The notes beneath the pieces are model-generated. The model searched no databases and had not been told where the DNA came from. It was given only the letters and a program-made list of their open reading frames with translations. The translations under genes were made by a program, and so were the position numbers. This document shows, one piece after another, positions 16,401 through 64,000 of a DNA stretch of 64,000 nt. Every line of letters starts with the position of its first letter. The stretch's first letter is position 1. This DNA comes from Pomacea canaliculata. Taxonomy: Eukaryota > Mollusca > Gastropoda > Architaenioglossa > Ampullariidae. The stretch spans positions 13,705,731 to 13,769,730 of the forward strand of contig NC_037602.1 of NCBI RefSeq assembly GCF_003073045.1. Direction: 5' to 3'.

Positions 16401-19400
16401 AATGTCAACAAAAAAAAGTATTTCTCAGCTGTTAAACAGCCTGCGAATTCCATGTAAACAATAAGGCAGGAGCTATTGTGTTGCAGGAATTATAACAAGT
16501 AACCAAGTGATGCATTTGTGTATAAACTCGTTATAACCTTTTATCTCTGGATATGCTGTCACATTTATTAATGTAAAACCATCGTTTTGGATACACAATG
16601 CAGACAGCTAGTTGGAAAAGCACTGTGGAATGATGGCAACGCATGCTATGACGGTGTATCTTACTCGCCCACGCGGCTAGAAAAGTGTAGTGTTAAGTAG
16701 ACTATTGTTTACATGCTTTGATCACATAGCAACTGTAGTAAGGAAAATGTATTTTCCATGTAGTAGACACGAGTGTCATTACATGCATTTGGTTTGCTGA
16801 GTCCGTTACTACAGAACCTATCATGGAAGTGTATAGGTGGATCTGCTTGTCTTTCCTCAAAGACAACTGCTAATCTTGCGAAAGTGACTCAGTGTTAGTC
16901 TGGCGAGCTAAAACAGAATTGCAAAACCGAAGTTGTACCTAATGCTCGTTTAGGTTCGAGTACCGGGAAGACGGGGAATCTCTGCAGCAGATACCCGTGG
17001 CTATGTCGTAGCCCGTGTCCAGATACATAAATAGGATCAAGCCGATGACGTGTATCTTGTAAAGGCCTGTGAGACCAACGCTCTGTCCAGCACGCGCTTT
17101 CCTGCTCTTCTGAACATAATCGGTATCGCAACGTCGGGTGGCTGCATGGGAGGGAGACAGTTGGTTCTACGACAAAGACGTTGGTCGTCGTCACCTAGTT
17201 GGATCGGTGTAGCGGAGTTATCAAACTCCCCGGAACGTGCGGTCCATCCTCAATAACGTTTTATCTGACATGAAAATTCTTAGAGTCATTATTATAGCTA
17301 CAATGTCTGAGACAGTCTTGCTTCATGGTAAAGCTGGGAAATGTTCACACACCATGAAGATATCTTTTTTAATGTTTCAAATGTTGGACACAATTTGGCG
17401 AAGCAATTTCAGACCAACCAGTCTGTTGTGATGACTGCTGGAGTAGCAGAATGAGGCAAAAATTGTCTTGTCATATTTCCCCTAAACGTGTCTTGGTTTC
17501 TTAAGTTTCATTTTGCCTTTTCCCCAGCAATATAGGGGAGTCTCGTGGTGCAACAGTTAGGGGCTGTCAGCAATACATTCATTCATGATTGGCTGTCCTG
17601 GGTTCAGATCTTGTCTTGGGCAAACTGCTTTTTCTTTGCATGTGACATCTGTTTATAGCGCTGGCCTTTGCGGTCTATATACGCTAACGCTCGTGTAAAA
17701 CACTACCTCCCCCATCTACGTCTCAGCAATATGGGAACTTTGTATTGACCATAATAAAATCACCAAAATCCCGGAAAATAGAGATGCAAATTAATATTAT
17801 TGCTTCAGGTTATCACAGGGCTCTGGTATTTAAGAGTGTGTTTTTCCTATTTTTTTTACATGTATCCTAAACCAAAACATATTTTTTTGTTTAGAATAAT
17901 GATCAAACTAAAATGTTGGTGTTCACAAGGACTAAGGATGTGTATTCTCTCCAGAAGTGATGGTGATTTGATTAGTAATTCAGAATCGTGAAACATGAGA
18001 TCTGAGAGAACAAGAGAAGGGGAAGAGGGAGTGTATGTATAGTATGTGTGTTTGCAAGCAATGTAGGCTAAGGCATGATAGTCGGACTTATGAGAGCATA
18101 CCTCGATGAAGTGAAGATAGTGTTCCAAAGCTGCTTAAGTTCTCTTGAAGTCGCCAAGCTGCAGCCCATAATTAGACACATTGGTGTTAAATGGTGTGAT
18201 TAGTGTTCACAAGAGTTTCGTGAGGAGTCATCTCAGGCAAAAATATATCATCAGATGGTTCTACACCTGATGATATACTATAATAACCTGTATATAGACA
18301 CATAACAAAGCAGACTCTGATAGTTATAAGTATAAGATGGAAATCGTATTTGGTGATACAGCTTAAATACACTTGTATGCGAATACTTGAGATCCTATCA
18401 AAATCCCGTCACTTGTTTCGTTGAAGAGTCAGGCTCATAATCAGAAAAGAGGAAATAAATTGCTAAAACTGGCTAGTTTGCTAACAATACTGTGACAGTG
18501 AAGAAGCGGAAGAAAAGCTGGAATAGTAAACTGAATTTGATAGTTCGTTACATCAAAAGACCAACTCAGCAAGGTAATTTTTTTTTCATGTTTCCATTAA
18601 ATGTCAGCATGAGGTCTGCAGCAATTGTGCAGTTATTTTAGCTGTATTTCCTTTTACAGTACATGATGTATTTGTGTTTTTCCTCACAGGTTTCCTTTTA
18701 GTTCATGACTAATTGGATTTTTAATTTTTGAGATTCAGCATCTTAAAACCTATTCCAGATAATCAAAGTTATTACTGCTGGTCTGCTCTGAAATTGCTAC
18801 TGTAATTTATTTTTTATTAATGTTGAAGATGAAGTGTTTAATTTTGATGGTTGCAGAGTTGGTGATTATATTTTATGCGTGAATACGAACTGAACTCACC
18901 GGCCAGCTCGAAGGACGTGTGCAGCAGGTGTTTCGTCTACTTCCAAGGGGCCTGGTCAAGCTGCTGGTCAGCACTCAAGCCCCAGCAACAGCTGGTAATA
19001 GCAGTGAGATGCCTTCCTTTCATCTGTTTAGTTTTAGCAGTCACAGATGCTTGCATGCATCCACATACAAATACACAAAGAATTTTTTGACACAAAGTAT
19101 AAACAATTTGTGATGTAAATATTTGTGAAATACTAGCATGTGATTTTACATTATGGTCATTTGCCAGAAGATATTTTGTCCTTTTCTCATCAGTATACTT
19201 CAGACACTGGCTTAAGATATTAAATTGAATAATCTAAACTGACACTCATTCTCCATTTTTTATGTTCCTTTCTGTGATACTTCATAATAAGTTACAACCA
19301 AAGGCCTATATTCCAGTAGCTTTATGTTCACAAATTCCCTGTCCTCCATCAGCTTTGATATGAATTGTTTGAAGTGTACTTTCGGCTTGCAGAAAACAGA

Positions 19401-22400
19401 AAAGTAATTGTGAATTGTGTTTTTTTATTCCATTTTCTTACAGTCGCTGAGCCAGCAGGGGGCCTTCTTTCACCTAGACAAAGTGGCACAGTAAGAGTAT
19501 CTCCCCTCCCCTTCGCATCAGCAAGTGCTGATAACTCATCCATTCCAGTTACTTCCCCTGCATCTGACCGTGCTGTATCTGCAGTAACAAACTCAGCACA
19601 GACTCCTTGTGCTGCTGTAGCATCTGAAGAAGAAGACACAGAAGACATGTCAGGTAGCCCTTTTAGACTTTCAAAAGCCCTGAGCCCTCGTGGTGGGACT
19701 ATGCCTTTTGAAGCTCCAAAACCAACCCCTAGGCAGAAGGTTACAGTGCCAACACCTGCAGCAAAGGTTCAGAGTGACCTTAGCAAGGATGAAGGAAATG
19801 CCAATGCTGTTGCCTCCACTAGAAAAGCTGATTTTGTGACGACTGCTGCACGGCGACCATCTGCCAGGGATGAAGATCTTCCTGAGACACCCGAAGTTTT
19901 TCCTTCCCAGATAAAAGCTACAGAGAATGTAGTCCCAATGTCAACAGAAGAAACTATGCTTTCAGAACAGTACATTTCCAGCACTGTCTCCATTATGAAT
20001 GCTGCTCGCCATCCTTCTGGTGTTGACATTCCTCGAGAAGAAGTCCTACCTGTGTTTGCAGAGGCAGCAAAGAAGTTGCCTCCAACACCTGTGCCAAGAA
20101 GTAAAGTTGGAAGTCCTCCCAAAAGGCAGGAAAATGACCAAGAGGAGATAACTTTGTCAAACTTGACCAGCTCATATGCCGAAAGAGAAGTGGGCGCACC
20201 AGTGAGGGAAGAGATAGTCACATGTAAACCTGTCATCTATTCTGATAATACACAAGATACCTTCGCCTCCCAAGGTCCCACCTCCAGTTGCTCCCAAACC
20301 CAGCCGCGTATCAGACTTACCTGTTTTTGGTGCTCATACAAATGATGGTGTAGTAGAGGTGCTCTCTCCCACATTTGTGTCACCAAGGCTGATCGAGTTT
20401 GTAGATCCTTCTGTTGCTTCTCCAGAGGAGCAGCTGAAATGTCGCAAGTTTGTATCATCAGCAGCACGCATGTTTGAAGAGAAAGCAACAGAAAAACCAG
20501 TCCATAACATGACTAAAGCCATCAGGTCTTCATTGCCCATCACTTCTGTTATCCAGACCTTCAGTAAGGAGGGAGAGGTAGAGGCACATGGTGGCAAGCC
20601 TATCAATAGGGCCCTCATGCCAGACAGAGAAAAGCGAAAAAGCACACCACTGTTTACTGCAGTCACATCTGCTGGGTTAACAAAACCTGCAAGCTTGTCT
20701 CCACTTAAAGACGTTCCAACGTCTAACAGGGTAGGTGATGCAAAGCGTGCGTTGGCCCAGAAGGTGGTGGAGAACAGTCCACCAGAAAGGACCCCTCGAA
20801 TCAACTCAGCCCTTCAGCCAAGACGTCTCTGTTGAAACAGGATTGGCAAGAAGAGCAGCATGTGACGTCTCCACCTCATGTTGGTAAGGCTGAAAACTTT
20901 GATTTGTCTTTTAAACCGCCTTCACATTCTTCCATTCACTTTGTGCACACTGGTGATTCACATGAGCACTTCCCTTCTTTATTTACTACAGCACAAGAAG
21001 CCACAGAGGATGGCAAACAACCTAAAATGGTTTTCTCATCCAGTTCTTTGCATCATTGTGATAAAAAAAGCGATTCTTCCTCCTCAAGCTCTTCCAGTAA
21101 ATCTAGGGGGATCAGATGTGTTAGATTCAACCATAAGAAAGTTTGATGATCTTTTGTCGGACAAGCTTGAGGAAGAACACCTCACAGTGTCCAACAGTGT
21201 CTCTCTAGACCTTGAATCATGGAATGCTACTCGAGAAGCTGCAAGAAGGAAGGGTAAAAAGGAAGTTACAGAGAGACAAGATTTTGGTTTACTTGCCTCA
21301 GAGACAAAGGACATAGTGAATTCACAGCCTGCAGAACAGAAAGATGTTGCAATTAGCAACACTGATGAGATTTCTTCAAATGGAATTTCTCAGATGTCAC
21401 CAACATTTAAGAAAGCAAATACAGAAATACATGATGCTTTCGCAGATGTTCATAGCAACTCAGTGACACAAGACTTGCACCAAGAGTCACAGGTAACAAA
21501 AGAAGATGATGCCAAAGATATTATCTACAGAGTTGTGAAGGTAGAAATACATCAGTGTCCTGAAACACTAAGTGATTTGACACTTCAAAGAACAGTCAAA
21601 ACAGATGAGCCACAACAAAAAATGTCATCTCTAGGTGATGGAGATGCCAAAGATTATCCTGATCAAAAAATTTCAACAATAATAAATGATAAAAAAGATC
21701 AAGATGTTGACTCAAATGAGCTTGAAGCTGTCTCAGAGCAACTTTATGAACAGCATGCTTCAGCTTTAGTGGAGAGTGTTCTGAAGCATGCGTTGAGCGA
21801 TGTAGCCTCTAAAAAGACCAAAGATGTGAACAATGTTGATACTTCTCTTGCTTCACCTTCTCTGCCAGAAGAGGAACCTCCACCTCTGCCGGGTGCTCCA
21901 CCTCCCCCACTCATTTTGCGAGATCCAGCAAATGTTCTCATCACTGCAGCAGATTTAGAAGAAATACTCCAGTCATCCAACAGTGAACAGATACCACTAT
22001 CAGAGGTGGACAGAGACTTCACAGAGTTTGACAGATCTCCTCGGTCTAATCAGCCAGTAAGTGATACCTGTCTGAGGACTCAGGTGTGCTAGATGAGGAG
22101 GATTCACCACACAAGCAATGTGGATTCTTCAACATTTGAGTTAGTGATGACACCGGACGAGGTCATTGCTTCAGTGGTGCCCTCTGGAGGAATCAGTGCC
22201 ATCTTCATATCAGATAAGGCAGCAGCACTCCTCTGTGCCTGGCGTTGCTGATTTAAGTGGTGCCAATGCTAGCAAAGATGTATCAGACTTTTTGGTTGAC
22301 AGTGTTGTTGATGTTCACACGGATTTCAGTTTGAGTGCACCGCAAATGTCAGCTCACTGTGGATATGTCTTTGTCACAAATTTCACCATCATCACAAAGC

Positions 22401-31100: not shown

Positions 31101-31685
31101 CCCACGTGACAAAACTTGTATTCCGACTCATTTCACCTTCTTAACAAGAAGCCGATTTGTCCCAGTCGTCGCAAGGGACGCCGAAGGAAAGACTGCGAGG
31201 AATGTCTTTTTGACTCCGATTGCTGGCCGGAGGGGGGCAGTACTTAAAGGGCAAAGGTCTGTGCTACGTCACTCGAGGGATTAGAAGGCTGGCCACAAAG
31301 GTGGGCTGCGCGACAGAGACAGCGTCAGACCACCTGACGTCGGGCGGTCGTTGGCAAAGCCGTGGTGGCCTTCATTTGTTCTTCTTAGACTGGCGTTACA
31401 GTCTTAGCATCGTTGTCGACCTGTGCTGTGCAGACCTCCAAAGGTCAACTAGTTCCAGTTTATGTGGAAAGAACTCGACACGCTTCAGTGTCTAATTTAC
31501 AGTACATACATGACGAAGTTCAAAGAACGAAGGTCACCAAAGTACTGTGACAGTGATCAAGTACTTAATATAAAACAGTAATAGAATACAGTCAAGTACT
31601 GTAATATTGTATTTCATTAACAAAATCCCGAGCACAGAGGGGAATAGAAGGCTTAACTCGTTATAATCGGTTCGTCGTAGCTGTT
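28164..31685. other. Intergenic region between the PDZ gene and the chitin deacetylase-like gene
   Basis: No gene is recognised. A GC-richer block at about 28770-29080 gives overlapping minus-strand reading frames without known motifs. Short direct repeats of CAGGTTATAATA and CCCAGGTTATC lie at 29475-29535. A TA microsatellite is at 30997-31010. Promoter elements for the gene at 31686 are not obvious. Confidence 0.5.
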
Positions 31686-32952
31686 ATGGACCTGCATTGC
31701 ATCATTATGACATCTGTTTCCGTTTGTCTCCCTTTACTGCTGTTGCTTCCCCTGACGTTAACTTTGGACGACCGATGCTCCAGCAGTAACTGCCAGCCCC
31801 CGAGTTGTCGCTGTCCGGGTCACAACATCCCTGGAGGCTTCGAACCGGAGGAGGTGCCCCAGATGGTTCTGATCACCTTCGATGATGCCGTCAACTGGGA
31901 CAACTGGGACTTTTACCTCCGCCTCTTCCCGCCGGATGGAAGCCGGCGAACCCCAACGGCTGTCCGGCGGCGGCTACGTTGTTCGTATCCAACAATTTCA
32001 CGGACTACTGCATGGTGCGCAAGCTGCACGGACGCGGCTTGGAAATCGCGGACCACAGTCTGACCACCGTCTGCCGCACGCCTGGTGGGCCGAGGCCTCG
32101 CGAGAGGACATCGAGAACGAGATCGTCACCCAGCGTCATAACCTGGCCCAACTGGCGGACATCCCCGTCACTGACATCCGCGGCTGGCGATCACCCTTCC
32201 TTCAGCCCAGCGGGGACAACATGTTTGAGGTTAGTCCTACATGGGTCCGAAGTTTCTGGAAGGTTGTTTCTCGTGTGTGTCACCAGTTTGCAGGCTGAAC
32301 TAGCTCACGCTCGCAATTTTTTCCCCCATTTCACCCAATCTGACACTACCTGGCCGCTTTCTCAGACTTATTCAATAATACCTCAGCAATTTCCTTCTGT
32401 GACGCTTTGCGGTAATTGGAAGAGTCCTCGCCGCATAATGTGACATATGGTGTACTTCAGTTCTGTGGTCTCTAACTCAGACTGAAATAACTCTAGCATC
32501 CACGTCTTCTTACCACCGGAAACTTCAGTCTGGGGTAAGAATATGTCTGGAAGTGTATCACAGCAACTAAAGCTCGTACTGCTGGCTGGTAAAGGTCGTA
32601 ACTTGAGGAGTGAGGATTTCGAGCCCTCCCTACTAATTTGGGGCCACTGAGTTACTCGATTTTCTCTGCCTCGCTGTCGTCTCAAGTACCCAATCCACGG
32701 CTAGGTCAACGCTGCGTCACACGGGAAGCGAACCGACTAACATATTTGCCACTGAGTTTGGACGTTACTGTCGTAACCATTACGATACTACTAAGATATT
32801 CGTTTCTGGCTTTGCGAAGACTGACCGTGATAACTACATTATTTCTCCCCTAGCCTTCACGCAATTTTCAATTTTAAAAACCTGTTGCTTGTAGCTGGGT
32901 GCACCAGCAGAATCAGTTTGGACGACCACTACGATGACGACGACAATACTGC

Positions 32953-33019
<67 letters not shown>

Positions 33020-35059
33020 AATTAGTGTTACTGTCGCGTAACCGTCCCTGACGTCGCCACACAGCAGTAAAGAAGAAAAAATGAACGGTACAAAACAAAT
33101 TTATTACACACAAAAAATGCTAGTGAAATCTCTCAAATGCACACCTGCACACCCACACTTAAAAAGAGAGTGAAAGGAAAAAGAGAAAAGAAAAACTGCC
33201 CTGTTCACAGGCGAGAGACAAATAAAAAACAAAAGGGGACACAGCACCCGCACGCACTGCTGTGTGGCAAGTCTATTGTCCGGTCAAGGTGTCCGCCGAC
33301 TGCAGCTTGCCCTCTGGCCCTGCATGACGCTCCACCGCTGACTCCCCTTCCTCTCTTCCAGGCAGGTTCCCCGGGGGCCCTCTGCAGGTGCGAAACCGGT
33401 GCAGCCCGTTGGTCACGTTAGCCCCTGCTCACAGCTCCGCAGGAAGACTCGGGGAACAGCAGGGTCACCTGTCCACGCGCTGACAGGGCGATGAGGGCGC
33501 AGGGTGGACGGGCGGACAGTTGGGGTCCTTGACGTAATGACGGGCGTAGATGGAGAAGTGGGAGAGTGGAGACGAAGCCTGTAAAGAGAGCAGTCCATAC
33601 AATTGTCCAGCAACAGGTGGCTCTCGTGAAACTGCTCCAGGTCCCACTCTTAGATAAACATTTCTAAACATGTCCTATATATATATACAAACCACCAGAC
33701 TATTACATCTAAATTCTAAATCCACACAAGGAAAAGCAGGTGAGCGCCACATGCAACTCGACCCGGACATCCCAATTCTAAGCTAACAGGTGATGTAACA
33801 CGTTCCGCACTCTAAATCTGAAGAACATAGTTATTAGACATACACAAAAACACACACAATACTTTTGATGTAGCCGAGTGGTGGGGATTGTGGAGTGAAG
33901 GCACAAGGCTCCCGCCGACAGAGCTCTGTGGATAGACAAGGCACGCAAGCCATCACACCACTACAAGGTAGCATGTACCAACTGGTGGTGGCTAGAATAG
34001 TGCGAAACCCCAAAAAGATAGACGTCCACTCATCCAAACGGTTTGCGACAGGTCGTCTGCAGAAAAAGGCGCCGGCTGCCAGGGCCCCGGTCTCACACCA
34101 TCCTGCACGTCCGGCACTGCCCGTTGCTGGAGGACGACAGGCCTAATATGAAGACAGTCAAACAATCACCAACACGCGACAGTTACTACTTTTTATTGTA
34201 TTCGCCTCTTTTACGGGCTTTATTTTTTCCTTTTCGACAGGTTTTGTACGAGAACAACTTCACGTATGACGCCACCATGACCTACCCGTTTCCCCGCAAC
34301 GTCTTCTCACCCGTAATGTGGCCTTTCACCCTGGACTACTCCTACACTTTGGTCTGCAACATCCAGCCCTGCCCCAAGCAGACGTATCCAGGGCTGTGGG
34401 TGATACCTGTGGTGGTCATGATGGACTACCGCGAGCACCTGCCCTGCGCCTACGTGGACCATTGCACCAACGAGCCCCGCAACCAGTATGAAAGCTTCGA
34501 GATGTTGTGGAAAAACTTTCTGCGCAACTACCGCACCAACCGCGCCCCGGTCTACGTCAACCTGCACTCCGTGTGGCTGGAGACAGATTTCCACATGGAG
34601 GCCATGGATGAATTCATTCAGCGCCTGCTGGGCATGAAGGACGTGTACCTGCTGTCGGTGCATAAGGCTCTGGAGTGGGTCAGCCACCCGACACCGCTGT
34701 CACGCATCATGGACTTCAAGCCCTGGCAGTGCGACTTCACGCCGAACCAGGAGGACAAGGAGTTCTGCTCCTTCACCTTCCGTCCCATCAAGTCCACCAC
34801 CACCCGCCGCACCACCACCACTTCCCGCACGCGCTACCACAACACCGCCGAAGACCAAGACAACGACATCGACGATGAGGAGGATAGAGACCACAACGGC
34901 TTTGCGAAAGAGAACATGGAAGACAATAGGGGGAAGGGACACAGACATCACGCACACCGCCCGTGGTTTCTGAGGGGCACCGCGGTCAGCTCCCTCCCGC
35001 CAGTCGAGGTTATCCTGCTGCTTGCAGGGCTGAGTGTTCTCATGTTTGTGAGCACGTGA
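31686..35059 (+). CDS. Chitin deacetylase-like protein (CE4 polysaccharide deacetylase), GPI-type tail
   Basis: Two exons, 31686-32229 and 34241-35059, joined in phase 0 (donor TTTGAG|GTTAGT, acceptor TTTTCGACAG). The start is followed by a signal peptide (SVSVCLPLLLLLPLTLTL), a Cys-rich stretch and the CE4 domain. Motif 1 is TFDDA with both metal/catalytic Asp present. Motif 2, HSLTH, is present but interrupted by a frame break. Motif 3 is RGWRSPF, and a later VNLHSVW carries the conserved His. The C-terminal part has Cys pairs typical of animal chitin deacetylases (CNIQPCPKQ, YVDHCTN), then a Thr/Arg- and acid-rich linker and a final hydrophobic segment (VEVILLLAGLSVLMFV) that ends the protein, as in GPI-anchor signals. 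Exon 1 needs two single-base corrections, near 31949 and 32063; each looks like one lost base. Length is about 453 residues. Likely role: deacetylation of chitin at the cell surface or in the matrix. Confidence 0.85.
32590..32815 (-). mobile_element. Probable tRNA-derived SINE, different family from the 17.5 kb copy
   Basis: On the minus strand, a tRNA-like head shows TCGTAATGGTTACGAC (box A region) and, about 45 bases on, GTCGGTTCGCTTCCCG (box B region). A non-tRNA body follows to about 32590. I found no clear target-site duplication, so ends are approximate. Confidence 0.45.
32948..33019 (+). repeat. Compound triplet microsatellite (CTG)n(ATG)n
   Basis: Nine CTG units pass directly into about fifteen ATG units, inside the chitin deacetylase-like intron. 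Confidence 0.95.
33360..33640 (-). other. GC-rich, coding-like block antisense in the intron, unidentified
   Basis: On the minus strand, a good acceptor (GCTCTCTTTACAG) precedes GCTTCGTCTCC, and a donor-like GGACAG|GTGACC follows 120 bases later. One frame between them reads SHFSIYARHYVKDPNCPPVH, which looks protein-like. I do not recognise the family. It may be an exon of a nested antisense gene, a pseudogene fragment or chance. Confidence 0.25.
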
Positions 35060-36075: not shown

Positions 36076-36081
36076 TTTATT
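36076..36081 (-). terminator. Poly(A) signal of the CUB-repeat gene
   Basis: AATAAA on the minus strand, 112 bases after the stop codon at 36193. Its position supports the assigned last exon. Confidence 0.75.
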
Positions 36082-36192: not shown

Positions 36193-36307
36193 CTACCCCC
36201 GCAGGCCGTTGTTAACATTGTTAAGTGCATTTCTCACATTATCGATGTCCTGGTCCAATTCGTTCAAGTCAGCCTCGAATTCCCCGAGAGCGCTTGTATT
36301 GGGACAC
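36193..36307 (-). CDS. Last exon of the CUB-repeat gene: acidic helical tail
   Basis: The acceptor is CCCTCTGTTGCAG. In phase 2 the exon reads CPNTSALGEFEADLNELDQD and continues with an Asn-rich amphipathic stretch to TAG, a short possible coiled coil. As sequenced, the repeat exon of cassette A ends in phase 2 because of a 2-base insertion in one repeat, so this frame is reached. The other two frames close within about 14 codons. Confidence 0.6.
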
Positions 36308-39300
36308 CTGCAACAGAGGGTGAATGTTCAAGAATGAGACTTTACACTTAGGTGATGGACTGATAAAGCACCATACTTTTTGATTGAACAGTTGAGGCAT
36401 CAAACTTATCTGATAGCAAGGGTTTTGTAACCACTTGGATGGTATTAATTCAGAGTTATCTAAATAAGCCTCTTTTTAATCGAATGGGCGGGTGATTGTC
36501 TCTTTAACAAGGTTTTGACTTTTGGTGAGTTATGTTACTATGACCTAATCCCACATGGCCTGTTACTGTTACTAAAGACTAAACTTTGAGTTCAGTCTTT
36601 GGCTGATAGAGCTACTTTGTTGAACAACAAAAACATTCGCAAGATTATTTATTACTGGGAAGTTTTCGAATCCTTTCTCGCCATTGTAGTTCGTTGCTCA
36701 GTTTTTATAACTATGAAGACAACATGAAATTCCAAGTTTGCTCGTCCCCTGAGAGAAGGAGTGAGTTAGCAATCCAAGATTATCTGAATAATGAATGAGA
36801 TCCACCCGTGGAAACCTTGAACGGCGACATATTGTGTTAGAACAGTGAACCATAAACAGTGAAGTGTGAACAAACAAAAAATTATATAGCAAGTGCACAA
36901 AGATTAGCAATCTCTTTACCTGATTAGTAGTGTTGTATGGGTAGCCGGTAGAATTAGTGTAGTAGGGATAGCCGGTAGAATTAGTGTGTAGTATGGGTAG
37001 CCGGTAGAATTAGTGTAGTACGGGTAGCCAGTTGAATAGTTGTAGTATGGGTAGCCGGTAGTGCTGTTGTAATTCCAAACGTCCCCTGATCCTGTTGAAG
37101 AAAAAATAAATCCCTGAAATTATCATTGAAAACGTAGCATGGACTTATTGTCTATCTCCTCCAACACCTCATCCTCCTCTTTGTCACATTACACAGACCG
37201 TCAGGCCAGCCTTTCATTTGCATGACTAGTTTTTGTCTTTGTGCCCGTCTGCTCTTGTCTCTCTATGGAATGCTTCGCACAGGCATATAGTGCAGTTCCA
37301 ACTAATGTTATTACAAAGTTCAATGAAGCTTTAAGGAAAGCTACGGATTCCATGACCATGAATATTAGTATTAACACTAAAAATGGATAACAGCTTTCAT
37401 TGAATGGTTTGACGAAGAATGCAAGCCAAAGAAGAGTTTGGTAAGAAGGACATTAAGAATGCATAAGAAGAGAAAAACAGAGGAAGGAAGGATGCTGTAA
37501 AGAAAGAAAAGCATGCAAGCACCTATTAAAAGAGAAGGAGCAGTCCTTTATCCACACAAAAAATCAGATCTCTTGTGGATGATACCAGCAACCACAAGGT
37601 CTTTTGGAGAAAATAGAAAGAAATGCAGGAAAAGGCATTTATAATGGGGACAATAAAGGAGGAAGAGTGGTAAACTATTTTAAAACAAGACTGAATAAGG
37701 GATGGGTAAAATGTAACATTTTGAGTGACACCTGTTAACATAGGGACAGTGCTTACAATATTCAGCAAGATATTCAGCCCATAAAAATTGTAAAGCTGCT
37801 GGTCCAGATAGCATCATGAGCGAGGTGTTAAAAGCATCTGCCAATGCCATAGTATCTTTCTTTGTGAAATTATTTAATAGTCTATATGACCAGGGAATAT
37901 GGCCCTTCCTGGAGAGTGGACTAAATCAATAATTATTCAAATTTATAAGAAGGGTGACCCAAATAGTCCTGATAACTATAGAAGCATTTCACTAATAAGC
38001 ATACTAAGTAAAGTTACAAGCATTATACATAAAAGGCTGACTTATGGGAATCATATAATTGTGCTTAAAGCAATTAAAGACGTGTGTGTGTATAACGTTT
38101 TTCTGTTTTTTTTCTTCCGTCCATCCAGCGGCCTCTCCGGAGGAAGAGCTATCGATTTATTGTTCGCTCTGTGTCTCAGTTAACCCATTGCGTGTGGTTA
38201 GGTGCTGAACTGTGTAATAAGACTAACTCACCTGAGGAGTTTGTGATGACGTAGCTGATCTCAAAACCAGGTCCTTGGACAGACGAGTCCGATATAAATC
38301 GGACCACAAAATCGCTGTCATACACTTGATCTGCGCGTACACACGAGCACGCACACACACGCGAGCACACACACACACACGCAATGAGGATTTCTCATCG
38401 AGTAGATATGAATGTAAATTACTTAAGACAATTTACTGAGGGGCCATGCAACATAAAGAAGTCCAGATTAGAAGTCACATATCAAAAGACATTTTTGAAA
38501 TAATAAAATGGATATTAAAGTATATATTCCGCCATTAATGACTATCATATTTAGATTCATACAAACATAAAAACAAGAACAAAATTTATATCCAAGAAAT
38601 CCCTGCTATAAAAGTTGGCTGTTCAAACGTTTGTCAGAGGTTACTTCACGTCACAAACAAACAAACAAACAAACAAACAAACAAACAAACAAACAAACAA
38701 ACAAACAAACAAACAAACAAACAAACAAACAAACAAAGATTGACTTACATGTTCGCTGGCCGGCCTGGGTACCGCAGATCAAATTATTATAGTCGTCATC
38801 AAATGAAGCTTGTCATACGAGCAAAAAGAGTTAGCTTCGATGCTGACATTGTATCTGAGGGTGATGAAGGTGCCTGGCTGTGTGTGGATGGTGTAGGTCC
38901 ATTGTGCATTATCCGGGTAGTAAGAGGGATAGTTGAGGCTTTGGAAACTTCCAGACGGGCCCCAAAAGTCTCTGGTCAAGAAGGAGTAACCTGCAATCAA
39001 CCAAGCACCAGAAAGATAAAATCTTTAATTAAATTGAAAGTGTGCAGTGCAGTTTATAGTAAGTCCCGTAACAGTGAGAAAGAAATAAAGAAAGAAACAA
39101 GCAAACAGCCAAAGAAAAAAACAAAGAGTATTGGCGCACTGGGAACACCTGCAAAAGTGGTTAAATGCTCGACAATGGACACTATACTTAGCTAATGGAT
39201 AGATAAGACACCATACTTCTTGAGATGGACAGTTGAGGCACCACACTTGTCTGATAGAAAGGGCTTTACAATCAGCTAGGTAGATATTAATTCTGAGTTA

Positions 39301-42300
39301 TCCGAATGGCCTCTGAGGGTGACTGCCTCTTAAACTCTTTCTGCTTCTCACAAACTTTTGACTTTTTGTGCCTCATTCCTATTGAGTCTGTTACTGTTAC
39401 TATGCTTTACTCCTACATAGTCTGTTACTATGACCTGCTCCCATGTAGTCTGTTACTTTAACTATGCATTACTCCTACATAGTCTGCTACTATGACCTGC
39501 TCCCATGTGGCTGTGCTACTGTTACTATGGCCCGATGTTTAAGTTCAGACTTTTGCCGAAAGATCTTTTTTAAAGAAAAAATTTCAAGGTTAGTTATTAC
39601 TACTGCACTTTCCGGATCCCTACTCACGATGGTAGTTGGCGGAAGGGACATAAAAGTATGGAGAGTTCTACACAGTAGGAAAGACAAGCGTTGCTCAGTT
39701 TTCATGACTATGAAGACATTATGCGCTTCCAAGTTTGCCCGACCCCGGGGAGAAAGACTGAGTTAGCAATCAAGATTATCTGAATAACGAATAAAATCCA
39801 CCCGTGGAAACCATGAACAGCGACATATAGTGTTAGAACAGTGAACCATAAACAGTGAAGTGTGAACAACAACAAAAATTATATAGCAAGTGCACAAAGA
39901 TTAGCAATCTCTTTACCTTGATCAGTAGTGTTGTATGGGTAGCCAGTAGAATTAGTGTAGTACGGGTAGCCAGTAGAATTAGTGTAGTACGGGTAGCCAG
40001 TAGAATTAGTGTAGTACGGGTAGCCAGTAGAATTAGTGTAGTACGGGTAGCCAGTAGAATTAGTGTAGTACGGGTAACCGGTAGAATTAGTGTAATATGG
40101 GTAACTGGTGGAATTAGTGTAGTATGGATAGCCGGTAGAATAAGTGTAATATGGGTAACTGGTGGAATTAGTGTAGTATGGATAGCCGGTAGAATAAGTG
40201 TAATATGGGTAACCAGTAGAATTTGTGTAGTATGGGTAACCGGTAGAATTAGTGTAGTATGGGTAACCGGTAGTGCTGTTATAGACAGGTTGATAACTGC
40301 TGTTGTAAGAAGGTTGATAAGTGGTGCTGAAATTCCCAAAGCCCGTGGATCCTGTTGAAGAAAAAAAAATCCCTGAAAATATTATTGAAAAAATAACGGG
40401 AACGTATTGTCCACCTCCATCCCCTCCCCCAATACCTTTTATCTTCATCTTCGCAACATTACACAGACCGTCAGGCCCGCCTTTCTTTTGTAATGAATAT
40501 TTTTGCCTAGTCACGTGAGTGAGATATGAAGACTTCCCATAAACCTGTGTCCGTCATTGTCTGCTCTCTCTATCAATGTATACAGTTATCTGTTTGCTCG
40601 TCCGTCCATCCAGCCGTCTGTGCAGAGGGAAAGCTGTCACTTCATTGCCTGCTCTGTAGTGTCTATAAACCCGTTGAGTGAGGTTACCTGCTGGACTGTG
40701 AATGAGACAAACTCACCTGAGGAGTTGGTGATGACGTAGCTGATCTGAAAACCAGGTCCTTGGACAGACGAGTCCGATGCAAAGCGGACCACAAAATCGC
40801 TGTCAGGCACTTGATCTACCCGCGTACACACACACACATACAAGCACTCCATTTCCATCATATTTACATCTTTGATGCAGTTGTATTTATGTACTGTTTA
40901 TAGTAAAGGTCCAGCAGACATCTATACATTGCACTTGAATCATATCTGACTGGATTGAGTTTTAATTTAATCAGTCATAAAGTAGTTTTGTGACATTAGA
41001 ACCAAAGCTTTTGACACATGTTTGTCTGTCAAGACCAAAGCTGTAGACACACACATTAAAAACAAAAACAATTGTTGACTTACATGTTCGCTGGCCGGCC
41101 AGGGTACCGCAGATCAAATTATTATAGTCGTCATCAAATGTCAGCTTGTCCCAAGCGCAGCTAGGGTGAGCTTCGATACTGACATTGTATCTGAGGTGAT
41201 GAAGGTGCCTGGCTGTGTGTGGATGATGTAGGTCCATTGTGCGTTATCGGGGTAGTTCGAGGGATAGTTGAGGCTTTGGAAACTTCCAGACGGACCCCAC
41301 AAGTCTCTGGTCAAGGAGGAGTAACCTGCAATCAACAAAGCACAAATAGAAGAAAGATAAAACCGATTTTATTAAATTGGAAGTGTGCAGTGCAGATTAT
41401 GGTAGGTCCCGTAACAGAGATAAAAAAGAATGAAAGAAAAAAAGAAGAAATAAAATGAAGATGGCGCATGTGCGAGTGTGTTCTTGCATGAGCAGTGAAA
41501 TGCATCTTTCTCTCTCTCGCTCTCGCGCAAAGTTCCGATGAACCGATTTTTTAAAATGGAACTTTAAGACGGTGGTTCTCAAAGTGTGGTCTACAGCTGA
41601 CAGTCATCATCTGTCCGCAAAGTGATGTTTAAATCGCGAGATACACTAATTAGTCGAGTGTTGATTTTACACCAGTTTTAATTTCATCCATGCTCACCTG
41701 CTCGTTCACATAAAACCCTCGCTTACCAACGAAGTCTTTACGTCACATCGTGAGCATCACGTCATTCAACCGCGTCATAGGTCACCCTTAGTAACTCAGT
41801 CCACTAATTTTTTAATTTTCATGAGTACTTTGCGAAGTCTGTAATTTAATGTCAACTAATTACTAGTCTACTTTCTCAAAGTACATTTAGTTTTGAATTG
41901 TAACGAGAGCAATGCGGCAGTTTAAATGTGAAGTTCACGAGACAGAGTAGTTCTGGGCCTCGTTAGCAAAGTGGTCCACGGTCTGAAATACTTTGAGAAT
42001 TTGAGAAGCATTGCTTTCAGAGAACATGATATTTCTCCAGAGAAAATTACAGAGATGCCACTTACCTGCTTGTCTCTTCAGACGGGAAAGAAGGAGCTGG
42101 AGAGAAAGGTAAAACTGATAAGCATTTACAAATATTTAACGATAATTCACTAAAATTATTTTTAAGTTCATTGAGAAGACGATTGCACTTTTTTCTCACA
42201 GGAAGGTAAGGCAATTTATTGACATCCAAGACCTATACAAATATCAATTTAAATTTCAGGCTGTTGTATGGGTAATATGGGTAGCCGGTAAGAAACAATC

Positions 42301-42838
42301 GTTTATTAACATCCAAGATCCATTCAAATATCAGTGTAGACTGTATCCTACTCAAAGATTAATCATTTATGACATACAAGATCCATACAAATATCTATTC
42401 AAATGTAATGAATCTATAATTACATTAACACCCATTAGTAAAAGTTAATCGATATAGAAAGTTAAGCAATGCTTTTAGAGGCAAATTTTATCCACCACAT
42501 GGATTTCGAGAGAATAATATTACAATATGTATTTGTAATTAGACATAATTACATTATGTTCATTATATTGGAAAATATATAAAAGGTTTCAACAATAAAC
42601 TTTTTAAGAAAAAGCCTTTGTCCAGATACATTCCCTCTATCCTGTCTTCTGCCTAAAGCATTTTCCTTTTTGGCAAGTGATTCGAAACAATCTTTGTCCA
42701 GCGACAAGGTAGAAGATACGAACACATCCCAATTACCCTGCTAAAAAAGTTCTTTTTTTAACTGACATTCTTTCCAGGTAGTGAGTGTACCAGTTCGGCG
42801 ACCGTCAACAAGATGAGAGAAACTTTCAATAAACTCAT
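36193..42838 (-). CDS. Secreted protein with two CUB domains and tandem YPYYTNSTG repeats
   Basis: Exons in transcript order: signal exon from 42838 (end unresolved, near 42760); cassette B 41084-41325, 40717-40815, 39917-40351; cassette A 38749-38990, 38232-38330, 36920-37091; last exon 36193-36307. The start gives a signal peptide (MSLLKVSLILLTVAELVHSL). Each cassette has a CUB domain split over two exons (SGSFQSLNYPSNYPDNAQWT; SDFVVRFASDSSVQGPGFQI) and one exon of 9-residue repeats, most with an NST glycosylation sequon. Internal borders are phase 1, so B's repeat exon joins A's CUB exon in frame and the whole reads as one gene. Each first CUB exon lacks one base (242 instead of 243), at different sites. 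I know no family for the repeat; an extracellular matrix, mucus or shell protein is a guess. Two adjacent genes are the alternative, but no second signal exon or poly(A) signal was found between the cassettes. Confidence 0.7.
36920..37091 (-). CDS. Cassette A repeat exon, five 9-residue units
   Basis: After SGDVWNYNSTT the exon encodes five units of the type GYPYYTNST, one of them with two extra bases. The length of 172 bp shifts the exit phase from 1 to 2. The matching exon in cassette B has 13 units. Confidence 0.7.
37275..38095 (+). mobile_element. LINE fragment with reverse-transcriptase start, degraded
   Basis: In scattered frames, the sequence reads CKAAGPDSIMSEVLKASANA and then WTKSIIIQIYKKGDPNSPDN and YRSISLISILSKV, the standard opening of a non-LTR reverse transcriptase (GPD, KKGD, NYR-ISL). 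Stops and frame changes occur and both ends are truncated. The block is absent from the same intron of cassette B (40352-40716), so it inserted after the cassette duplication or was lost from B. Confidence 0.8.
38232..38330 (-). CDS. Cassette A, second CUB-half exon
   Basis: 99 bp, phase 1 to 1, reading QVYDSDFVVRFISDSSVQGP then GFEISYVITNSSG. Donor CTCAG|GTGAGT. This is the last third of a CUB fold. Confidence 0.8.
38654..38736 (+). repeat. (ACAA)n microsatellite
   Basis: About 20 tandem CAAA/ACAA tetramers, just outside the first CUB-half exon of cassette A. Confidence 0.95.
38749..38990 (-). CDS. Cassette A, first CUB-half exon, one base short
   Basis: The acceptor is TGATTGCAG and the donor CGAACAT|GTAAGT. 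It reads GYSFLTRDFWGPSGSFQSLN and on to IEANSFCSYDKL, where one base is missing compared with cassette B (AAGCTTCATTTG against AAGCTGACATTTG), so the frame breaks before the FDDDYNN element. Confidence 0.75.
39917..40351 (-). CDS. Cassette B repeat exon, thirteen 9-residue units
   Basis: 435 bp, phase 1 to 1, fully open. After GSTGFGNFSTTYQPSYNSSY it has twelve full units of YPYYTNSTG type and a partial thirteenth (YPYNTTDQG). Ten of the twelve full units carry an NST sequon; two have TYST instead. Three of nine residues per unit are Tyr. A chain of closely spaced N-glycans on a Tyr-Pro backbone is predicted. Confidence 0.8.
40717..40815 (-). CDS. Cassette B, second CUB-half exon
   Basis: 99 bp, phase 1 to 1, reading QVPDSDFVVRFASDSSVQGP then GFQISYVITNSSG. 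Donor CTCAG|GTGAGT, identical in layout to the cassette A exon at 38232. Confidence 0.8.
41084..41325 (-). CDS. Cassette B, first CUB-half exon, one base short
   Basis: It reads GYSSLTRDLWGPSGSFQSLN and on to HTQPGTFIT. One G is missing compared with cassette A (TGAGGTGATG against TGAGGGTGATG on the plus strand). After that, the other frame continues LRYNVSIEAHPSCAWDKLTF and DDDYNNLICGT to the donor CGAACAT|GTAAGT. Confidence 0.75.
41570..42013. mobile_element. Non-autonomous hAT-like element, 444 bp, with 8-bp target-site duplication
   Basis: Inverted ends are CGGTGGTTCTCAAA on the left and, reversed, CAATGCTTCTCAAA on the right. It is flanked by CTTTAAGA (41562-41569) and CTTTCAGA (42014-42021), matching at 7 of 8 bases. 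The TGGTTCTCAAA-type end is typical of hAT elements. It has no coding sequence and lies in intron 1 of the CUB-repeat gene. Confidence 0.75.
42211..42404. repeat. Three diverged tandem units plus a remnant of the YPYY repeat
   Basis: Units begin near 42211, 42300 and 42361, sharing TTTATTxACATCCAAGA and ATACAAATATCxATTTAAA-like blocks. Between the first two, at about 42258-42292, the minus strand reads TGYPYYPYNS, a short relic of the repeat exon. This may be what remains of an older third cassette in intron 1. Confidence 0.55.
42760..42838 (-). CDS. Signal-peptide exon of the CUB-repeat gene
   Basis: The ATG at 42838 has a good context (GCCGCCATCATCATG). It opens MSLLKVSLILLTVAELVHSL, a clear secretion signal. 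The next exon needs phase 1, but the obvious GT sites here are in phase 0; only a weak A|GTTAAA fits. The exon end is therefore unresolved, and a missed small exon or an indel is possible. Confidence 0.6.
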
Positions 42839-42930
42839 GATGATGGCGGCACCAACACCAGCAGCAGCAGCAGCAACAGCAGAGGAAGCAGACGGCCGGC
42901 CTTAACCTGATTTCTGGTTCGTGAGGAGAC

Positions 42931-42938
42931 TTTTTATA
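42931..42938 (-). promoter_or_regulatory. TATA box of the CUB-repeat gene
   Basis: TATAAAAA on the minus strand, 93 bases before the start codon, in the context GAGCTATAAAAAGTC. It predicts a 5'UTR of about 65 bases with a CTG-rich run. Confidence 0.65.
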
Positions 42939-43838
42939 GCTCTTGTTTTTCTTTTCACTATTCACTTGCGACCAGCTGTCCAATCTGAGGTTTGTGGAGG
43001 CGGTGAAGTCACGTGAAGGTGCATCAACAGACAATATTTCACTCAGGCTTACAGGTGTGTCAGGTGAAAAGAATGTACCATTGCCTTTGAGAAGTCTTTG
43101 GAGCGGCTTTGTGGCCAGTTGTAATGCACCCCAAAAGATCGACCCCCAACACCACCACCACGACGACCACCACCAACACCACCCCCACCACCAGCACCAC
43201 TCTCTGTTCTTATGTACAGACGAATTAAAGGAGAGCGCCCACGAACACTGAAAAATTCGGTCAAGATGTTTTATAAAAAGTTCTTTAATATACTAAATAT
43301 TAAACTCATGGGGTTTTATTATTATTATTGTTGTCTTTGAACAGTTTGATAAGTAAAGCCATGTTTTATTTGTTATATTAATGGCAAACTTTAAGTTGTA
43401 ACAAAGTGCTTTACTGATATACAATTATGATTGTTGTTATGGTTGTTGTTTCGTTGTTGAAGAGTTTCAGCTGTAACGTAAATTTTCTATGGTTGTCATT
43501 ATAAAGGCACATCCAAAATTGTGATAGTGGGCTTCAGAAAAGTAAATTATTATTATTAACCTCAAAGATAATAATAACAACTCATTGCGCTGAACACGAT
43601 CATGAAATAGTCACAAAGATGTAAGAACGAAGTATAATGAGAAGGCTCGATGAGTTCCGGCAATAGGCACGGGGACACAACTCTCAGACTGCCATATAAG
43701 CGGCTTCTAAACTGAGCATTTTGTGTTTTATGCAAATTGGACTCAAACTTCTGACCAAAGTGTACATACTCGTTCTAGATTATATGGTATGACCAAACGT
43801 TTCCACAGAATTATGGTTTCAGCTGTATTTCTTTTATG

Positions 43839-49919: not shown

Positions 49920-54990
<5,071 letters not shown>

Positions 54991-61748: not shown

Positions 61749-63976
61749 TTAATATACTCCATTTTTGTCCATTCGCTTACTGCTAGCAGCTTGCTCTACC
61801 ACATTAAAGAGGGGGTTTGCATAGCCATCGTTCCCATTTCTTTGAGTTTGTCCATTGCTTTGGTTGGTGTAATGGGCATTACCATCACTACCAAGGGTGA
61901 TCTCAGATGCTCCAGTCATGTACTTGCTTGTGCCGGACAGAGTAAAGGGATTAACTTCAACACCTCCCATGTCATACAGCTGGTTTTGCATTGCTATGCT
62001 GCCATCAGGGTGCTGTTCCATAATGTTGTCATCAAAGCGCTGATGGGGTATAGCTTTTCGGCGCTGGTGGAACTTGTACATAACCACAACAGAAACAGAT
62101 GCCACCAACAGGATCACAATGATTGGAACAGCAATGGCAGCAGCATTGGTTTTGACCGTGCTGTGAGCTTGGGCTTCTGTAATCCCGCCTTCTACTGGTG
62201 TATTGCTTGAATGGGTTGAAGAAGTGTAATCTGAAATGGTTTGTGTGGTAGGGGTGACTGATACTGAAGATGTGACAGCTTTAGCTTTGGTTGTGGGTGG
62301 TGTTGTGCTGCTTTTAACAGTGGTTGTGGGTTTTGTGCTAGTGGTTGGCTGCCTTGTGGTGGGTTTTGTAGAAGTGGTATACACTTGTGTAGTGGTGGTG
62401 GTTTGGGCCTGTTTAGTAGTTGTAGTAGTGGACATAGTAGTTTTGGTAGTTGGTTTAGAAGTGGTAGTGGTTGGAGTAGTGGTGGTTGTGGAAGATGCAT
62501 TTGTTGAAGTGATGGTTGTACGGGATGTTGAACTAGTAGTGAAAGTGGTGGTTGGTTTTGTAGTGGAGGTACTCATGTAATCTGAAATGAGATAATGAAA
62601 AGTTAAATCAGCATCTGGTTAATATCAGATTAAGCTGATGTATATTTGTGTATGTATGCATGTGTGAAGCCATATATCTACGAAATTGCAAGCATAAAAA
62701 TAGCGATATTAGATGTTCTCTCATAACAATACTTCTAAATCTGGGTTTTTCTAAACAATTTCAATTAAAATTAAACCGACAAGATGCTTCCCTTAAAATC
62801 AGAGTCAAAATAAGCATTTGAGGAGCAGCTGATAGTTTGTCGTTTTTTTTAAACTCTAAAGAAGAGCACAGCCCATAGCCTAAGCAAGAACAAATATTTA
62901 GCAACTAGCTTCTATCGAAAGAAAAGCACCATAACCTTTATCTGTTCATTTTACTACAATGCTCAAGTCCTCCGTTAACACACAGCTCTATTTCGTAAAC
63001 AAACAATTTAAAATTCTGACAGTTTTTTGTAGCAATGCCCAAGCTGGTTATATTACAGCTTACGTAAATAAAAATAAATCACTCAGAAACTAATATTCTT
63101 ACCAACGCTAGAGTTGACTGTAGAGCAGACTGCAGATGCATAACCGAAGTCATGAAAGCACTGTGGAGTTGCTAATATGTTCTTGCATGTATCAAATTCT
63201 TCCCGATGTCCACACTTGGATTCTATAGTTGTTAAGGGAAATGTTCCAAAGAAATTACAGCAGGCAGATCTTCCATGGGAGTAGCCAAGAGATAAGCAAA
63301 GAGTAGATGCTGCTTCATCATCAAAGCCGTGTGAACACTTTAATGAGTAGGCGTCACCTTTCCATACTTGCACAGCCCCAAAGGTTATGTTGCTTAGGGT
63401 CACTGTATGACAGAAGTAGACATTTTGTTGAAAAATTAAAATGGGAACTCTAGCCCACCAGCCCAAAACTATCTGTAGGACTCTTTCAAAATTGCGGAAC
63501 CATCTTAACACTCAGCTTTGCACCTTAACTTTTATTTGTGCAAAAGTTTTTGTTTGTTTGTAACTTTACTTATACATGTATATGAAATTGATTCTTGCCT
63601 AATGGATTGGTCTATTCCTGAAATAATTTTTAGTAGCCAGTTGTTGGTCAGGAACAAATTATTTCACCTTTGGGAACACAGTGCACTCTGGCATAGTCGC
63701 TGATGTACTTATAGCTCCCCCAACCATCGTTGGGACAGGCCAGCAGTGATCTATGGTGTGGTCCACACTGCACATTGCCCAGGTATATGGGGCTTGAGCT
63801 GACATTATAGGTAGCATTGCTGATGTCACCACCTGTAAAGCCAAGCTCTCTGCACAATACATCAGCATCATCTTTTGACCAGGAGGTGGTATGTAATGCA
63901 TGCCATTCACCATCATAGCCGACCATCACTTGACCTTCAAATAAGGATCCCCCTGCCAACCGGAACTCAATGCCAT
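61749..63976 (-). CDS. SRCR-domain membrane receptor with mucin-like stalk (3' part; 5' end outside window)
   Basis: Exons in transcript order: 63668-63976, 63103-63402 and 61749-62581, all joined in phase 1. The first encodes a scavenger receptor cysteine-rich domain (FRLAGGSLFEGQVMVGYDGE; DADVLCRELGFTGG; LLACPNDGWG). The second encodes another, more diverged, SRCR-like domain (SNITFGAVQVW; ASTLCLSLGY; DFGYASAVC). The third gives a Thr-rich stalk of about 140 residues, likely O-glycosylated, one membrane span (AAAIAVPIIVILLVASVSVV), a basic stop-transfer YKFHQRRK and a ~90-residue cytoplasmic tail. The tail has NPF (VNPFTL) and NPLF (GYANPLF), possible adaptor motifs. It is probably a cell-surface recognition or scavenger receptor. 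All three exons are open without breaks. Confidence 0.88.
62582..63102 (-). other. Intron of the SRCR gene
   Basis: 521 bases of AT-rich DNA with standard GT-AG ends (GTTG|GTAAGA; TCATTTCAG). Nothing else is seen. Confidence 0.8.
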
Positions 63977-64000
63977 CTGCAAAATTAAAGTTTCCATAAT

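What the first reader, a model, noticed from the sequence alone, without database searches (positions are those of the whole stretch)
36193..42838. Unfamiliar secreted protein: CUB domains alternating with a 9-residue Tyr/Asn repeat, built by cassette duplication
The sequence shows a signal peptide, TATA box, two cassettes of CUB-half, CUB-half and repeat exon, and a poly(A) signal. Symmetric phase-1 exons let whole cassettes be duplicated without breaking frame. I recognise no family with the repeat YPYYTNSTG. An N-glycosylated, Tyr/Pro-rich extracellular protein is predicted; a matrix, mucus, adhesive or shell role is a guess.
Basis: partly seen in the sequence, partly recalled or inferred. 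Interest (0 to 1): 0.8.

Follow-up and report, generated by a model that had tools for sequence, protein, structure and literature searches.

The report
Secreted CUB and tyrosine-repeat protein gene
An animal gene predicted to make a secreted protein in which two CUB binding domains alternate with sugar-decorated, tyrosine-rich repeats; the repeat is unfamiliar, but the general kind of protein, an old extracellular domain joined to a young repetitive stretch, is well known in secreted animal materials.

Summary
On the minus strand, 42838 to 36193, lies a split gene: TATA box, signal peptide, a small exon ending in a furin-like RLKR site, two cassettes of CUB-A, CUB-B and repeat exon, a terminal exon and AATAAA; all 8 introns can be drawn GT-AG. 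Both CUB domains match Pfam and keep the calcium-site acids of PCPE-1. The cassettes are one tandem duplication that copied no leader, so one transcript is expected. Not in the finding's text: as assembled, the frame breaks three times (A1, A2, R2), and twice more (end of R2, start of T) if the terminal exon is read in its long frame. A neighbouring deacetylase exon breaks likewise, so assembly errors look likelier than a dead gene; reads are needed. Repeat-array variation sits mostly at third codon positions; exon-against-intron conservation is mixed. Most likely role, unproven: a secreted matrix, mucus or glue protein with calcium-dependent CUB modules and cross-linkable Tyr-rich glycosylated spacers. 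Expression, phylum and animal relatives could not be tested. The kind is known; this architecture was not found in seven literature searches.

The parts
42931..42938 (-). TATA box (TATAAAAA), 100 bases upstream of the ATG
   Evidence: sequence
42767..42838 (-). exon 1: start codon and signal peptide (MSLLKVSLILLTVAELVHS...); 3' end is either 42767 (AAT|gtcagt) or 42791 (CTG|gtacac), both phase 0, both weak donors by eye
   Evidence: signal peptide and donors judged by eye, no predictor available
42066..42096 (-). exon 2, 31 nt: LLLSRLKRQA, furin-like R-x-K-R site followed by QA
   Evidence: furin consensus recalled
41084..41325 (-). CUB-A exon of cassette 1 (one frame change as assembled)
40717..40815 (-). 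CUB-B exon of cassette 1, 99 nt, phase 1-1
39917..40351 (-). repeat exon R1, 435 nt: 13 units of the TGYPYYTNS type, open in frame
39142..39156 (-). remnant of the terminal exon's acceptor and first bases, inside the intron between R1 and CUB-A2; marks the edge of the tandem duplication
38749..38990 (-). CUB-A exon of cassette 2 (one frame change as assembled)
38232..38330 (-). CUB-B exon of cassette 2, 99 nt
36920..37091 (-). repeat exon R2, 5 units; one frame change within the array as assembled, a second at its end inferred from R1
36193..36307 (-). terminal exon: long frame gives an acidic, helix-like tail ...NTSALGEFEADLNELDQDIDNVRNALNNVNNGLRG; read as assembled in phase 0 after R2 it gives VSQYKRSRGIRG and an earlier stop
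36076..36081 (-). poly(A) signal AATAAA

Best explanation
This is a live gene for a secreted modular protein of about 500 residues: signal peptide, short propeptide cut at RLKR, then CUB - Tyr-rich repeat - CUB - Tyr-rich repeat - short tail. The second CUB-repeat cassette arose by one tandem duplication between phase-1 introns. The CUB domains most likely act as calcium-dependent binding modules (binding basic side chains or glycans), and the repeat arrays, rich in Tyr and N-glycosylation sequons and free of Lys and Arg, act as hydrated spacers whose tyrosines can be cross-linked by tyrosinase or peroxidase. The product would be a structural part of a mucus, glue, cuticle or shell matrix. Shown here: exon anatomy, CUB homology, calcium-site residues, the duplication, third-position bias in the array. 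Inferred: that the frame changes are assembly errors, secretion, processing, cross-linking and role.
For: CUB Pfam hits of 54.6 and 55.1 bits; Protein Data Bank sequence hits for copy 1, best cubilin 3kq4_B, E 3.5e-16. PCPE-1 residues Glu60 and Asp109, named as calcium ligands and ligand contacts, and Asp68, needed for binding (PMC6372009, passages), align with Glu, Asp and Asp in copy 1 (after an offset of 4 between chain and paper numbering); the same letters stand in copy 2. Tyr67 is Trp in copy 1 and Tyr in copy 2. R1 piece: 44 Tyr, 14 sequons and 0 Lys or Arg in 145 residues; read-through protein 15.6% Tyr and 25 sequons in 505 letters, with the longer exon 1 and the long tail. Third-position bias in the array, p = 0.0012. 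CUB exons 313 of 340 identical between cassettes against 412 of 492 in three flanking intron blocks together, p = 0.0005 (but see against). No copy of the leader between the cassettes (0 of 58 leader hits at E <= 10 lie there). Deacetylase exon 31851-32270 breaks frame twice too: none of the three frame pieces of that exon gives a Pfam hit at E <= 0.01, the joined read gives PF01522 at E 5.2e-05, 23.6 bits against a cut-off of 23.1. A tyrosinase was found only in the adhesive one of three Cornu aspersum mucus types (PMC10475054, passages).
Against: Three frame changes as assembled, five if the long tail is right. The intron block after the repeat exon is as alike between cassettes as the exons (206 of 227 against 313 of 340, p = 0.64), so the exon conservation may owe something to gene conversion or chance. 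dN/dS between the CUB cassettes is 0.49, not different from 1 (p = 0.13, 107 codons). Open frames of 577 and 345 aa exist in the same window, so indels are not everywhere. The exon 1 donor is ambiguous. No transcript, tissue or relative was seen. In the limpet adhesive study (PMC7333891, passages) the listed proteins have 3.9-15.1% Cys but for one, and CUB is named only in the protease-like P-vulgata_14.
Confidence: 0.38

Rival explanations
1. A recently dead gene: the frame changes are real mutations and the locus is a pseudogene, perhaps of a live paralogue elsewhere.
For: Three to five frame changes, in three or four of nine exons; dN/dS 0.49 not different from 1; one intron block as conserved as the exons.
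Against: No in-frame stop in the 107 codons compared in either CUB copy; splice dinucleotides, TATA box and poly(A) signal kept; two of three intron blocks less alike than the exons (p = 0.006 and 3e-07); frame breaks in the neighbouring deacetylase exon and three frame flips among overlapping ORFs at 19359-22092.
Confidence: 0.2
2. A secreted recognition or signalling protein, such as a reproductive (spermadhesin-like) or immune factor, in which the repeats are only flexible glycosylated linkers.
For: CUB is a binding module in cubilin, neuropilin, C1s, MASP and PCPE-1, the matches; calcium-site residues kept.
Against: No other domain above a Pfam cut-off in the five pieces scanned; the Tyr content of the arrays goes beyond what a linker needs. 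Neither point is strong.
Confidence: 0.25
3. Two separate genes, one per cassette.
For: The two cassettes repeat each other and a remnant of the terminal exon follows cassette 1.
Against: The remnant is only about 15 bases, and none of 58 leader hits at E <= 10 lies between the cassettes.
Confidence: 0.04

Closest known systems
CUB domain proteins (Pfam PF00431; cubilin, PCPE-1, C1r/C1s/MASP, neuropilin, spermadhesins)
   Same: Both copies match the profile over positions 5-110 of 110; the second Cys pair and the calcium-site acids are kept.
   Different: The first Cys pair of the canonical domain is absent (the PCPE-1 Cys at chain position 42 is Trp here); no protease, EGF or other partner domain above a Pfam cut-off.
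Molluscan secreted proteins with repetitive low-complexity domains (RLCD), reviewed in PMC4897951
   Same: Short repeat of about 10 residues, biased composition and, as the review describes, a repeat joined to an ancient domain (passages seen).
   Different: Tyr/Asn-rich with N-glycosylation sequons rather than the Gly/Ala bias that the review calls usual; CUB is not mentioned in the review's text (its one 'cub' match is a journal DOI); mollusc origin and mantle expression not shown.
Tyr/DOPA adhesive proteins such as mussel foot proteins (recalled)
   Same: Tandem short repeats with much Tyr.
   Different: No Lys or Arg in the repeats, N-glycosylation sequons instead; CUB domains present.

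Membership tests
CUB domain (PF00431) | profile match above the curated cut-off | tested here: met
   54.6 and 55.1 bits against 21.4, read through the frame change with X
CUB domain (PF00431) | four cysteines in two disulfides | tested here: not met
   2 Cys per domain; the second pair is kept, the first absent. Some accepted CUB domains lack the first pair (recalled), and the profile match stands, so I keep the domain call
Calcium-binding CUB | Glu/Asp/Asp at the calcium site (PCPE-1 Glu60, Asp68, Asp109) | tested here: met
   aligned residues are Glu, Asp, Asp in copy 1; same letters in copy 2
Calcium-binding CUB | binds calcium and a basic ligand | not testable with these tools
   needs protein
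RLCD secretome protein of molluscs | signal peptide and short tandem repeat with biased composition | tested here: met
   signal peptide by eye; 13 units in R1 and 5 in R2
RLCD secretome protein of molluscs | expressed in a secretory tissue of a mollusc and found in its secretion | not testable with these tools
   no transcript or proteome data; phylum not established (no genome held)
Mussel-type DOPA adhesive | Lys- and DOPA-rich repeats (recalled) | tested here: not met
   0 Lys or Arg in both repeat pieces; DOPA not testable

The most novel reading that the evidence does not exclude
The YPYYTNSTG array is not disordered but folds as a beta-solenoid of 18-residue coils (two units a turn) with stacked tyrosine ladders, so the protein is a rigid, Tyr-laddered rod tipped with calcium-binding CUB domains: a new kind of cross-linkable secreted fibre module. 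AlphaFold2 on R1 alone (one sequence) gives strands every 9 residues with an 18-residue pattern, mean pLDDT 79.8, 65 of 144 residues at 90 or more, four of five models at 75.9-79.8 and one at 36.9; no solved structure matches at E <= 0.001. But AlphaFold2 is reported to predict such solenoids confidently for random perfect repeats (PMC11795689, passages), and the same DNA in a wrong frame also gave strands, at mean pLDDT 66.3.
Probability: 0.07. Interest if true: 0.6.

Novelty: new member of a known kind. Interest (0 to 1): 0.36.

Why it matters
If transcribed, it is a clear case of how a young secreted material protein is built: an ancient binding domain, a repeat that can grow by slippage, and phase-1 introns that let the pair be duplicated whole. 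It gives a concrete candidate for tyrosine-based cross-linking in a secretion. It also warns that coding frames in this assembly seem to carry small indels, so automatic annotation may have missed or split the gene.

Tried and rejected
Separate genes per cassette: rejected because no leader copy and only a scrap of the terminal exon lie between them. Known family for the repeat: none in Pfam at E <= 1; best Protein Data Bank sequence hit CFAP96 at E 0.042, taken as chance. Weak sub-cut-off Pfam hits set aside: DUF7257 on CUB copy 2 (0.057), FlaC_arch (0.031) and Prefoldin (0.2) on the terminal piece. Relatives in collections: repeat exon in frame, genome contigs 14 and viral contigs 17 pattern matches, none confirmed; CUB copy 1, viral contigs, no match. 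These collections are prokaryotic and viral, so the absence says little. Literature: searches listed no paper that I recognised as describing a CUB plus Tyr-repeat protein; I saw listings with the starts of abstracts, and passages only of PMC7333891, PMC10475054, PMC9382459, PMC6626399, PMC6337334 and PMC4897951. No whole paper was read; only the CC-licensed part of PMC is held. In the passages seen, CUB in other adhesive systems occurs with a metalloprotease (PMC9382459), with SRCR domains or in tolloid- and cubilin-like proteins (PMC6626399), or with EGF domains in oyster proteases (PMC6337334). sought calcium-site background; the AlphaFold2 caveat. Reverse-transcriptase-like and other pieces of the window gave no Pfam hit at E <= 0.01 (0 of 5 pieces).

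A first version of the exon-against-intron test (310 of 337 against 124 of 152, p = 0.001) was faulty: the intron stretch held 25 exon bases, and the better conserved intron after the repeat exon was left out. It is replaced. Because that weakens the case for constraint, I moved the pseudogene rival from 0.17 to 0.20 and the main reading from 0.40 to 0.38. The count of frame changes was also corrected from a flat five to three plus two inferred.
Full report
WHAT IS THERE. A TATA box stands at 42938-42931 and AATAAA at 36081-36076. Nine exons and eight introns can be drawn with GT-AG ends: E1 (42838 to 42767 or 42791), E2 (42096-42066), A1 (41325-41084), B1 (40815-40717), R1 (40351-39917), A2 (38990-38749), B2 (38330-38232), R2 (37091-36920) and T (36307-36193). 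Exon 1 has two in-frame donors, both weak by eye, and I cannot choose between them. E2 ends in RLKR-QA, a furin-like site (consensus recalled).

THE CUB DOMAINS ARE REAL. Each A exon plus B exon makes one domain: Pfam CUB at E 1.5e-14 and 1.1e-14, above the curated cut-off (read with X at the frame change). In the Protein Data Bank copy 1 matches 35 distinct sequences at E <= 0.01, led by cubilin and PCPE-1. The PCPE-1 paper names Glu60 and Asp109 as calcium and ligand contacts and Asp68 as needed for binding (PMC6372009, passages). With the offset of 4 between chain and paper numbering, these align with Glu, Asp and Asp in copy 1, and Tyr67 aligns with Trp. Copy 2 keeps the same acids and has Tyr there. 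The first cysteine pair of the canonical domain is missing; 2 Cys per domain remain.

THE REPEAT LOOKS TRANSLATED. R1 holds 13 units of 27 bases. In the first 12 units 7 of 9 third-position, 2 of 9 first-position and 0 of 9 second-position columns vary; Fisher p = 0.0012 for third against the rest. The last unit, which differs (TGYPYNTTD), was left out of that count; with it the figures are 7, 4 and 2 of 9 for third, first and second. Columns and copies of a tandem array are not independent, so the p-value is indicative. The R1 piece has 44 Tyr, 14 sequons and no Lys or Arg in 145 residues. Two other frames of the array are also free of stops, so openness alone proves little.

THE DUPLICATION. 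The cassettes align over 36301-39100 against 39142-41442. The unit's edge lies a few bases inside the terminal exon, whose remnant remains at about 39142-39156. None of 58 hits of the promoter-to-E2 stretch (42040-43050) at E <= 10 lies between the cassettes. This makes an internal duplication in one gene, not two genes. Conservation since then is mixed: CUB exons 313 of 340 identical; intron before CUB-A 90 of 109 (p = 0.006), intron before the terminal exon 116 of 156 (p = 3e-07), but intron after the repeat exon 206 of 227 (p = 0.64); the three blocks together 412 of 492 (p = 0.0005). The blocks are those that BLAST could align; the A-B and B-R introns align poorly and were not used. dN/dS over 107 codons is 0.49, p = 0.13 against 1: suggestive of constraint at best.

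WHAT THE FINDING DOES NOT SAY. As assembled, the frame changes once in A1, once in A2 and once within R2. R2 then ends in phase 0, one base short of R1's end, and T starts one base short of the phase-1 pattern; two more changes must be assumed if T is read in its long frame, whereas the assembled letters give the short tail VSQYKRSRGIRG. By comparison of the cassettes, most of the five are one-unit length differences in short runs, which I recall as the usual error of long-read consensus. Controls: a polysaccharide deacetylase exon at 31851-32270 also runs through all three frames; none of its three frame pieces gives a Pfam match at E <= 0.01, but joined (with the next exon) they give PF01522 at E 5.2e-05, 23.6 bits against a cut-off of 23.1. 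Overlapping ORFs at 19359-22092 flip frame three times, though the two pieces of it that I scanned have no Pfam domain to show that they are one exon. Against this, frames of 577 and 345 aa are open, as is the 162-aa GPP34 frame. I favour assembly error at odds of about 4 to 1 over a recent pseudogene; only reads can decide.

FOLD OF THE ARRAY. AlphaFold2 on R1 alone gave mean pLDDT 79.8 with strands every 9 residues. Foldseek listed 224 Protein Data Bank matches at E <= 10 and none at E <= 0.001. [quoted passage not shown] The DNA array has a weak two-unit period (mean identity 0.92 at lag 2, 0.89 at lag 1, last unit left out), which fits an 18-residue coil or simply duplication of pairs.

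FUNCTION. The best guess is a structural component of a secreted material: calcium-dependent CUB binding modules and cross-linkable, glycosylated Tyr-rich spacers. Of three snail mucus types, only the adhesive one held the tyrosinase found in that study (PMC10475054, passages), and the review of mollusc secretomes describes RLCDs, alone or joined to ancient domains, as a common pattern (PMC4897951, passages).

VERDICT. A well-founded gene model of an ordinary kind with an unfamiliar repeat. Searches for the repeat letters and for CUB plus Tyr-rich or gastropod secreted proteins showed no description of it, within the limits of the held library and of the listings seen.

Noticed in passing
31605-35059 +: Polysaccharide (chitin) deacetylase-like gene beside the CUB gene; one exon (about 31851-32270) runs through three frames, as if the assembly had small indels.
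   Followed up: partly
19359-22092 +: Long overlapping ORFs change frame three times; looks like one large coding exon with indels; two pieces scanned, no Pfam domain found.
   Followed up: partly
42266-42292: A scrap of the Tyr repeat (15 of 15 bases identical over part of it) lies in intron 1 with no splice sites that I could see: perhaps a trace of an earlier third cassette.
   Followed up: partly
37790-38070 +: Reverse-transcriptase-like reading in the intron between CUB-B2 and R2, judged by eye; no Pfam match at E <= 0.01.
   Followed up: partly
63083-63998 -: SRCR domains (Pfam E 1.2e-14, and 0.00016 which is below the cut-off) near a Thr-rich, membrane-protein-like ORF at 61749-62618 without Pfam match.
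   Followed up: partly
49920-50408 -: GPP34 / Golgi phosphoprotein 3 exon (Pfam E 2.5e-22), frame open.
   Followed up: no
38653-38737: (ACAA)21 microsatellite directly beside the CUB-A2 exon, in the following intron.
   Followed up: no
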